A DNA stretch of 64,000 bases from Rhododendron vialii (Eukaryota; Streptophyta; Magnoliopsida; Ericales; Ericaceae): NCBI RefSeq assembly GCF_030253575.1, contig NC_080560.1, positions 34,461,501 through 34,525,500 of the forward strand, read 5' to 3'. Shown one piece after another: positions 48,055 through 53,230 of this stretch; the stretch's first letter is position 1; every line of letters starts with the position of its first letter. Under the pieces are notes generated by a model that saw only the letters and a program-made list of their open reading frames with translations, was not told where the DNA came from and searched no databases. A program made the position numbers and the translations under genes.

Positions 48055-51000
48055 ATGTCGAAGCGAGGTCAGTTCAGCATTTCTAGTTTCTTCTCAATCG
48101 GAAAGTTCACCATTTCCAATAACTCAATGGTTGGAGACACTCATACTTTTTCTTGTCTGTATTTTTTTTACCGGTCGCAGGGCGCGGTGGATCGGCGGGG
48201 AACAAATTCCGCATGTCGCTGGGTCTCCCGGTGGCGGCGACGGTGAACTGCGCCGACAACACGGGAGCCAAGAACCTATACATCATATCTGTGAAGGGGA
48301 TCAAGGGCAGGCTCAACCGGCTGCCGTCGGCGTGCGTCGGGGACATGGTGATGGCCACCGTGAAGAAGGGGAAGCCCGATCTGAGGAAGAAGGTCATGCC
48401 CGCGGTCATTGTCAGGCAGCGCAAGCCGTGGCGGCGAAAGGACGGCGTCTTTATGTACTTCGAAGGTTGTTATCGATAAAAATGGGAAATGGGTTTTGTT
48501 TACCTGTTTGTGCTTTTTGGGATTTGCTGTTATTTCGATTGGGAAACGTTTTACACTCCCCTGCAAACAAACCGAGCTGCTCGTGGCTTCGGTTCATTTG
48601 GTAATTGACCTGAGCTTGAGTTTTAGGCTTGTTTACTAAACGAGCTGAGCTCCACACTCATAAGGCTTGCCTTGTTTAAAGAGGCTCGTTAAGTAAATTA
48701 GTCACGGCTCTTTAAGTAATTGAGCTGGTTTGTTTATAAACGAGCCGAGCTCGACTTTTAGGTTCCTTTAGTAAACCTCGAACACTACGATGCTTGGCTC
48801 CCGACTTTTAGAGCTTCTCTCCTGCTTTAACCCCTTCTTTTCTTACTCAAAACTCAGAATTTGGTTTAAACCCTATAAAATTTGCTTCAATTCTCGACTC
48901 TAACCTGTACCAGCTTGAGTTTTACTCAAATCACGTGACAATCTAATTTTTGCAATCACATTACTCGCTATTCTAAAACACCATTTAACTAACAATGTCG
49001 TAAATATTTTCTTCGTCATTTACTTATTGTGGTGCAAAATTTTCTCTTGCAGTAATGTTGTGGGTTGTTAAATTGTAGTAGTAGTTTGTCAGCATGTAAT
49101 TGAATCGAAAGAAGTAGTTTTGCCATCCTTGTCGAGAATCAGAAGATTGTTGTAGCTTGCACAAATTACTCATTATTTTTAAACACCACTTAACAGTGGG
49201 AAATATTGAAATTTTATCCTGCGGTGATGATGCGTTGTTGATAAAATATAATGGTAGTTTGTTGGCATGGATTGGGTCGAAAGAAGAAATATTTTCGTCG
49301 TCTTTGTTGAGGGAGTTTTTTCGTAGTTTAGTTTGTGTTACACTATGTTCTACCTCCTTGACATTGTACAATTAACCTAGGGAGACAATGAATAGAAGCA
49401 ATGAAAGAAAAGACCTTTTGTTCTTTTGCTTCGTTCTCTCTTGAAACCACCTTCTCTTCATAGCAGTGTTCTAAATGGCGCTAGGCGCTAGTCGGGCGGC
49501 AACCCGCCGCCAAGCGCCTAGGCGCCACCGAGCCGAGCAATTCGGCGTTTGTTTTTTAAAAATATATATTTTTAAGGCAATTAAGCTCCGCCAAGATGGC
49601 CGCCTAGCTCCGCCAAGCCCGCCAAGATGGCTGCCTAGCTCCGCCAAGCCCGCCGAGACGCTGCCTAGCTCCATTAGATCTTAGCCGCCAAGCTTCCCCA
49701 AGTTCAGCCAAGTCGGCTGCCAAGCTGCCAAATCTCCAAATCTGCCGAACAAGCCGCCGAGGGTGAAATCTTGGCACTGACCTGCTGCAGAGCGCCTAGG
49801 CGCCGCCTAGGCGGCCATTTAGAACACTGCTTCATAGTTTATTCTATCTTTCATCCTCCTACACTTGTCTATTTGGGTCTAGCTTCTCACTCCAGGCTTC
49901 ATTTAATATTTTTCTTCTCTTATTTGGAAAAATGCATTTTGAATTCTCTATTATCACCAGGCTTAGTCAGGTATCCTCCTATATTTTGTGGTTGATACGG
50001 TTACAAGTCTGGAAAATCAAACATGTCTATCGTTACAGATGTGACGATGCTTTTGAAGGTCACATCTGCTCCATTAAGGCTTTACAAATAAATGGTTTCG
50101 TCGTTCCATGTCATTGGGTTAGCGCAGCTAAATTGGTCATACTAGATGCTGATAGATTTACAAAGAAAATCATAAGGTGAACTTTAGAGTGAAGGGCGAG
50201 TTTCTCTTTCTAGGTCTACTTATATTCTGGTGGGTTAGAGAGAGATGCTTTGTCTTATCTCTAGGCATCGTCTAGGTTTTCTTAATTCATGAGCTGTGTG
50301 TATCACATCTATAGGAAAAATAGTAATCGTTTGTTTTTGTTATTGGTAAAAGTTTGTAAGGGTACTTTAGGTGTAGTAATAATTTCATGTACGTTGTATT
50401 GCACATTAAATAATGCGTAATGAATACTTTATAGGACTTGTGTCAAAATATTGTTGTAGATTGTGCAAATTACTCATTATTTTAAAACACCACTTAACTA
50501 ACAGTGTGGGAAATATTTTCTCCTTCATTACTTATTTGGTGGTGCAAAATTTCGTCCTGTAGTAATGATGTGGTGTTAAATATAATGGTAGTTTGTTGGG
50601 ATGGAATTGAGTCGGAAGAAAGAAGTAGTTTTGTCTTCTTTGTCAAGAGAGATAGTTTTAAGAAGTTTAGATTGTGTTATGCACTTATCTATGTACTACC
50701 CCTTGACTGTTCAATCAACCAAATTAATAGAAGCAACAAGAGAAAAGACTTATGTTCTATTGCTTCGCTCTCTCTCAAAAGGACTTTTCTTCGCAACTTA
50801 TTCTGTCTTTAACCCTCATACACTTGTCTATTTGGTTCTCGCTCTCACTCCAAGCTTCATTTAATATTTTTCTTCTCTTTGAAAATATATATTGTTGGGT
50901 TCTATAATATCACCAGGCTTAGTCAGGTATCCTCCTTTATTTTGTGGTTGATACAGTTACAAGACTGGAAAATTAAACGGGGTCTATCGTTACAGATTTG

Positions 51001-53230: not shown

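What the first reader, a model, noticed from the sequence alone, without database searches (positions are those of the whole stretch)
49953..52294. Three H/ACA snoRNA copies inside one RPL23 intron
Three ~135-nt blocks (49,953, 50,909, 52,160) share a double-hairpin plan with ANANNA hinge and ACA tail. Spacing from pocket to H box (14 nt) and from upper stem to ACA (15 nt) is kept in each copy. Stem changes are partly wobble-compatible, loops vary, and in copy 3 similarity stops at the predicted RNA ends. A guide-RNA gene multiplied within its ribosomal-protein host intron is not explained by any coding feature.
Basis: partly seen in the sequence, partly recalled or inferred. Interest (0 to 1): 0.88.

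Follow-up and report, generated by a model that had tools for sequence, protein, structure and literature searches.

The report
Ribosomal-protein intron with repeated guide-RNA genes
A plant ribosomal-protein gene carries, inside one intron, three copies of a small guide-RNA gene whose likely target sites in ribosomal RNA can be read from its sequence; the RNA is of a known class, and its expression is not yet shown.

Summary
Confirmed. The blocks at 49953-50089, 50909-51046 and 52160-52294 are H/ACA snoRNA-like genes in intron 2 of a plant uL14 (RPL23) gene. Genome searches found four more, all in intron 2 of a second uL14 gene on C2; four other uL14 loci examined hold none. All 7 keep ANANNA and ACA and fit a two-hairpin plan. 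Between the two genes the RNA is 75-84% identical while flanks are near chance. Compensating changes give almost no support, so the case rests on constraint, boxes, spacing and guides.

The 5' pocket (identical in 7 of 7) matches 10 of 10 letters around the helix-69 uridine that is Psi3741 in human and Psi2258 in yeast. The 3' pocket matches 11 of 11 in 3 copies, 10 in 3 and 9 in 1, around the uridine 60 nt downstream, where human 28S has Psi3801. U19/snR191 guide Psi2258 and Psi2260; here the second guide differs, so this works like one half of U19 but fails two U19 membership tests. Copies 1 and 2 arose by tandem duplication; a modestly supported tree suggests separate amplification in each gene. 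There are no expression data. A new member of a known kind.

The parts
49953..50089 (+). H/ACA snoRNA gene copy 1 (C4_1), 137 nt, both guides fully matched
49965..49969 (+). copy 1, 5' pocket, left guide AGUCA
50000..50004 (+). copy 1, 5' pocket, right guide GUUAC
50014..50019 (+). copy 1, H box AAAUCA (ANANNA)
50030..50034 (+). copy 1, 3' pocket, left guide UCGUU
50070..50075 (+). copy 1, 3' pocket, right guide UCCAUU
50084..50086 (+). copy 1, ACA box
50909..51046 (+). H/ACA snoRNA gene copy 2 (C4_2), 138 nt, both guides fully matched (guides 50921-50925, 50956-50960, 50987-50991, 51027-51032; ACA 51041-51043)
52160..52294 (+). H/ACA snoRNA gene copy 3 (C4_3), 135 nt, 5' guide fully matched, 3' guide 10 of 11 (guides 52172-52176, 52205-52209, 52235-52239, 52275-52280; ACA 52289-52291)
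48180..48465 (+). uL14 (RPL23) exon 2 of the host gene, matched coding part
   Evidence: tblastn, 95 residues identical to the C2 paralogue's exon; end read from the splice site
48466..52524 (+). uL14 intron 2 (4059 bp), the host intron; GT...AG
52525..52566 (+). uL14 exon 3
49464..49829 (.). 366-bp insert with terminal inverted repeats and an 8-bp flanking duplication, in the first duplication unit only (hAT-like MITE by these features; the name is recalled)

Best explanation
The three blocks are intron-encoded box H/ACA guide-RNA genes. After release from the uL14 pre-mRNA the ~137-nt RNA would be protected by the H/ACA core proteins. Its 5' hairpin would direct the pseudouridine synthase to the helix-69 uridine GUAAC-U-A-UGACU of 25S rRNA (Rfam model position 2264; yeast Psi2258, human Psi3741, E. 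coli 1915). Its 3' hairpin would direct it to AAUGGA-U-U-AACGA (model position 2324; human Psi3801). Tandem duplication inside the intron multiplied the gene, apparently separately in two uL14 paralogues, keeping the 5' guide strictly and letting the 3' guide drift in some copies. Shown here: sequences, copies, constraint, host introns, boxes, spacings, complementarity. Inferred: expression, release, snoRNP assembly and the modification itself.
For: Seven copies found in the genome, all in the same intron of two uL14 genes. Over 12 between-gene pairs RNA identity is 0.746-0.835 with gaps counted (0.757-0.850 without) against 0.20-0.45 for 24 comparisons of 120-nt flanks, 2 of which pass the random maximum of 0.43 (30 random pairs, mean 0.32). 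Variable columns: 5' guide 0 of 10, ACA 0 of 3, H box 2 of 6, 3' guide 3 of 11, stems 15 of 52, loops and rest 40 of 58. Within the C4 tandem pair substitutions are 10 of 137 in the RNA against 60 of 355 in the duplicated flanks (Fisher p 0.006). 5' pocket 10 of 10 in 7 of 7 copies; 3' pocket 11 of 11 in 3, 10 in 3, 9 in 1 (target letters from the Rfam consensus printed). Such full matches occur 0.00125 and 0.0005 times per 5400 nt of random sequence (4000 trials). The predicted uridines are 60 nt apart, as are human Psi3741 and Psi3801, both in the mass-spectrometry map (100% and 50%; PMC6182160, passages). Rfam's U19/SNORA74 model weakly matches the 5' hairpin of copies 1 and 2 (E 0.0018 and 0.011). 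A third uL14 gene has snoR137 in the same intron (62.5 bits, gathering 44).
Against: No RNA evidence. No two-sided change in the 26 named pairs, and shuffles do as well. Six of seven copies fold only 0.4 to 1.0 standard deviations better than shuffles as wholes; the 3' hairpin of copy 3 folds no better than shuffles (z -0.03), and the minimum-energy fold of C2_2 does not show the planned 3' hairpin. Eight of 182 stem cells are unpaired, spread over all copies but C4_1. The U19 match is far below Rfam's gathering score (25 against 71) and copy 3 has none at E up to 5. Guide letters were delimited with the target in view, and both pockets leave one unpaired base on each side next to the upper stem. 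The plant's own 25S was not found in the assembly, so the Rfam eukaryotic consensus stands in; only 117 nt of it were scanned. The covariance model recovers its own seven members by construction.
Confidence: 0.92

Rival explanations
1. Only one or a few of the copies are working genes; the others are decaying tandem duplicates (snoRNA pseudogenes).
For: C2_2 has lost two of the eleven 3' guide pairs, C4_3, C2_1 and C2_3 one each; eight stem cells are broken in six copies; whole-RNA folds of 6 of 7 copies are within about one standard deviation of shuffles.
Against: The 5' guide, ACA and the ANANNA pattern are intact in 7 of 7; the C4 tandem pair has changed less in the RNA than in its flanks since duplication (p 0.006).
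Confidence: 0.35
2. A conserved intronic element acting in cis on uL14 pre-mRNA (splicing or expression), not a trans-acting guide.
For: All copies found lie in the same intron of uL14 genes.
Against: Four other uL14 loci (C1, C5, C13 and a partial one on C7) gave no match to the model better than E 1.3; boxes, hinge and both pockets fit an H/ACA guide to mapped pseudouridine positions.
Confidence: 0.05
3. A dispersed repeat or transposable element that happens to fold.
For: It is a repeated block, and a MITE-like insert ends about 120 bp upstream of copy 1.
Against: Two genome-wide DNA searches gave the same seven places in 532.6 Mb, all in two paralogous introns; the pockets are conserved.
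Confidence: 0.02

Closest known systems
U19/SNORA74 (human) and snR191 (yeast), box H/ACA
   Same: The Rfam SNORA74 consensus has the same 5' pocket letters (GUCA ... GUUAC), and U19/snR191 guide the same helix-69 uridine (PMC8307265 table passage; PMC2584109 passages). snR191 is itself intronic, in NOG2 (PMC8476143 passages); a U19 host gene is named in PMC7277114 (passage).
   Different: U19/snR191 also guide the Psi2260 site. Here the best site of the second guide is the uridine 60 nt downstream of the first (human Psi3801). About 137 nt against a 201-position Rfam model.
snoR137 (RF01433), box H/ACA
   Same: Same class and same host position: the corresponding intron of the C13 uL14 paralogue of this genome.
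   Different: No snoR137 match in window 49000-53500 at E up to 5 or in the C2 locus at E up to 1; the seven-copy model has no match at the C13 snoR137 place.
Intragenic (cis) snoRNA duplication, e.g. DmSnR60 a-d in Drosophila mfl and chicken snoRNA paralogues
   Same: Isoforms of one snoRNA multiplied within one host gene (PMC1821038 and PMC2653536, passages).
   Different: In those passages the copies sit one per intron or in different introns; here three and four copies share one intron. PMC5122169 says polycistronic precursors are standard in plants and only a few plant snoRNAs are intronic (section 3).

Membership tests
box H/ACA snoRNA | hairpin-hinge-hairpin-tail fold | tested here: met
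   RNAalifold consensus gives the plan, 95.6% of cells paired; but single folds are weak in 6 of 7 copies and compensation is almost absent
box H/ACA snoRNA | H box ANANNA in the hinge | tested here: met
   7 of 7: AAAUCA, AAAUUA or AAAGCA
box H/ACA snoRNA | ACA near the 3' end, about 15 nt below the upper stem | tested here: met
   ACA in 7 of 7; 15 nt in 6 copies, 14 in C2_2; the real 3' ends are not known
box H/ACA snoRNA | bipartite pocket complementary to a uridine site in a stable RNA | tested here: met
   (5' pocket 10 of 10 in all seven; 3' pocket 9 to 11 of 11); chance level
box H/ACA snoRNA | stable RNA bound by dyskerin, NHP2, NOP10 and GAR1 (names recalled) | not testable with these tools
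   no RNA data on hand
U19/snR191 (Rfam SNORA74) | guides the yeast Psi2258 equivalent | tested here: met
   model position 2264 (complementarity only)
U19/snR191 (Rfam SNORA74) | guides the yeast Psi2260 equivalent with the other pocket | tested here: not met
   best site of the 3' pocket is 2324 in 7 of 7; 2266 is neither first nor second
U19/snR191 (Rfam SNORA74) | score at or above Rfam's gathering threshold (71 bits) | tested here: not met
   25.0 and 22.2 bits in the window; 19.7 in the C2 locus
snoR137 (RF01433) | Rfam model match | tested here: not met
   no match in window 49000-53500 at E up to 5

The most novel reading that the evidence does not exclude
uL14 intron 2 is a recurrent landing and amplification site for H/ACA guides in this plant lineage. 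The conserved helix-69 guide was paired with a different second guide (Psi3801 site instead of Psi2260) and its dose was raised separately in two uL14 paralogues. That would tie the supply of a guide for an intersubunit-bridge helix to the output of a large-subunit protein gene, while drifting 3' pockets (C4_3, C2_1, C2_2, C2_3) are on their way to losing or changing their target.
Probability: 0.3. Interest if true: 0.6.

Novelty: new member of a known kind. Interest (0 to 1): 0.42.

Why it matters
Helix-69 pseudouridines are conserved across the domains of life (PMC3973299, passages). Arabidopsis has two mapped pseudouridines in helix 69, and for 13 mapped pseudouridines in 25S domains IV and V no guide is known (PMC8351944, section 9). 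A plant RNA with readable guides for the helix-69 site and for the Psi3801 position gives direct sites to test. If right, it shows a universal guide hairpin kept while its partner guide is different, and it offers a clean case of within-intron amplification of a guide RNA.

Tried and rejected
Rfam at gathering thresholds gave one match in the whole window, a U6 RNA, and no snoRNA, so no ready family name. SNORA74 membership was considered and not accepted (below threshold, second guide differs). A possible fifth copy in the C2 intron (L008 near 3329, minus strand), suggested by eye, was not found by the covariance model at E up to 5. Four other uL14 loci (C1, C5, C7, C13) gave no copy; a weak twelfth protein match on C5 at 35976773 (46% identity) was not fetched. 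Genome DNA searches score only the best candidates and skip very common words, so seven is a count of what was found. The target scan used only the 117-nt contiguous stretch of Rfam consensus printed, so better sites elsewhere in rRNA were not excluded; one search is a random-sequence control for the fixed guide letters, not a scan of real rRNA. The plant's own 25S could not be had: the exact pattern gave 0 hits and a DNA query gave three diverged fragments. Paper searches: (all ten allowed; 79 asked about human sites). No listing or passage that I saw names a plant RNA with these guides, but four older papers asked for are not held and supplements could not be opened, so it may well be in print. 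The tree groups copies by gene with 87/85 support only; gene conversion is not excluded.

Full report
What is there. The three blocks are real and at the stated places. They lie on the + strand in a 4059-bp intron (48466-52524) of a uL14/RPL23 gene. The matched 95 residues of its exon 2 are identical to those of a second uL14 gene on contig C2. Copies 1 and 2 belong to a larger tandem duplication with about 957 bp spacing, interrupted in the first unit by a 366-bp insert with inverted termini and an 8-bp flanking duplication. Copy 3 stands apart, with faint similarity left in its flanks (0.42-0.54).

More copies. A whole-genome DNA search with copy 1 gave 7 matches: the three of the window and four on C2. 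A search with C2_2, the most diverged copy, gave the same 7. The C2 four lie in the corresponding intron of the second uL14 gene. A protein search gave 12 matches, which mark further uL14 loci on C13, C1 and C5, a partial one on C7, and one weak match elsewhere on C5 that was not followed. A model built from the seven copies recovers all 7 in the window and C2 locus (E at most 2.9e-28, next best 0.65), as it must, and gives nothing better than E 1.3 at the C13, C1, C5 and C7 loci. The C13 gene has instead snoR137, a known H/ACA snoRNA family, in the same intron (62.5 bits against a gathering score of 44).

Constraint. Between the two genes the RNA blocks are 0.746-0.835 identical with gaps counted (12 of 12 pairs), while 24 comparisons of 120-nt flanks lie at 0.20-0.45, 2 of them just above the maximum of 30 random intron pairs (mean 0.32, maximum 0.43). 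Ungapped identity at single bases jumps to 0.75-1.0 at the predicted 5' end, and after ACA+3 it scatters between 0 and 0.75; it is also low at some bases between the 3' stem and ACA. Third codon positions of exon 2 differ at 33 of 95, so the two genes are well diverged. Inside the C4 tandem pair the RNA has 10 substitutions in 137 aligned bases, the flanks 60 in 355 (Fisher p 0.006). Variability is lowest in the 5' guide (0 of 10 columns) and ACA (0 of 3), then 3' guide (3 of 11), stems (15 of 52) and H box (2 of 6), and highest in loops and the rest (40 of 58).

Structure. RNAalifold on seven rows gives the H/ACA plan by itself. Of 182 cells in 26 named pairs 95.6% are standard pairs, 26-35% when slid, but the structure came from these rows, no named pair has two-sided change, and the shuffle control is not exceeded. 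RNAalifold's extra pair 96/110 is the only one with two-sided changes (2 rows). So compensation gives almost no support; wobble-compatible change is what is seen. Eight cells are unpaired: C4_2 at 9/58 and 92/114, C2_2 at 10/57, C2_3 at 23/44 and 89/117, C2_4 at 90/116, C4_3 and C2_1 at 95/111. Single folds stand out from shuffles for copy 1 as a whole and for both its hairpins, and for the 5' hairpin of copy 3; not for copy 2, the 3' hairpin of copy 3, or the four C2 copies as wholes, and C2_2 prefers another fold of its 3' half.

Targets. The letters of the Rfam eukaryotic LSU consensus printed (117 nt) were scanned with each copy's pockets. The 5' pocket AGUCA/GUUAC pairs 10 of 10 around model position 2264 in 7 of 7 copies; the runner-up reaches 5 pairs and one wobble. 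The 3' pocket UCGUU/UCCAUU pairs 11 of 11 around 2324 in C4_1, C4_2 and C2_4, 10 in C4_3, C2_1 and C2_3, and 9 in C2_2. Random sequences of 5400 nt hold such full matches 0.00125 and 0.0005 times (4000 trials). Position 2264 is the helix-69 uridine of yeast Psi2258: the consensus AACUAUGAC fits the published run AmC-Psi-A-Psi-GAC (PMC7277114) and the yeast entries Am2256, Psi2258, Psi2260 (PMC8307265), and the human entries Am3739, Psi3741, Psi3743 have the same spacing (PMC6182160). Position 2324 is 60 nt on, and the human map lists Psi3741 (100%) and Psi3801 (50%), also 60 apart. A check in between holds: the uridine 56 nt on (2320) fits human 3797 and yeast 2314, both modified. The yeast table has no 2318 entry, so the second site is human-like, not yeast-like. 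The second site was picked by complementarity to remembered 25S letters; the human table was looked up only afterwards, although I remembered a human site near there. I count this agreement as the strongest single support.

What it is and is not. It has the hinge box, tail box and fold by which PMC5122169 describes box H/ACA snoRNAs (section 3). Its 5' hairpin fits the work of the U19/snR191 guide for Psi2258 and is weakly matched by the U19 model (E 0.0018 and 0.011 in copies 1 and 2, none in copy 3), but the second U19 guide (Psi2260) was not found and the score is far below threshold, so it is not filed as U19. Whether the 5' hairpin is homologous to that of U19 or merely shaped by the same target cannot be told.

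History. The tree groups the C4 copies and the C2 copies apart (87/85), pointing to separate amplification in each gene or to gene conversion. In C2 the pairs 1/3 and 2/4 are closest (0.87 and 0.86).

Limits. No RNA data, no relatives from named plants, and the plant's own 25S is not in the assembly as far as two queries show.

Noticed in passing
window 29729-29822 (+): U6 snRNA match (62.5 bits against a gathering score of 44), diverged; by eye I saw no plant snRNA promoter element just upstream (motif recalled), so probably a pseudogene.
   Followed up: partly
window 49464-49829: 366-bp insert whose ends share CAGTGTTCTAAATGG in inverted orientation, flanked by the 8-bp duplication CTTCATAG; not seen at the matching place of the second duplication unit, so probably younger than the tandem duplication.
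   Followed up: yes
L012 3535-3669 (-), contig C13: snoR137 in the corresponding intron of another uL14 paralogue: a different H/ACA snoRNA in the same host intron.
   Followed up: partly
L023 1435-1584 (contig C3): Diverged 25S rRNA fragment (92 bits; 84% identity to the query over 111 nt).
   Followed up: no
window 53365-53500: Perfect 55-nt direct repeat, starts 81 nt apart, about 135 bp downstream of the uL14 stop codon; the stretch searched ended at 53500, so it may be longer.
   Followed up: no
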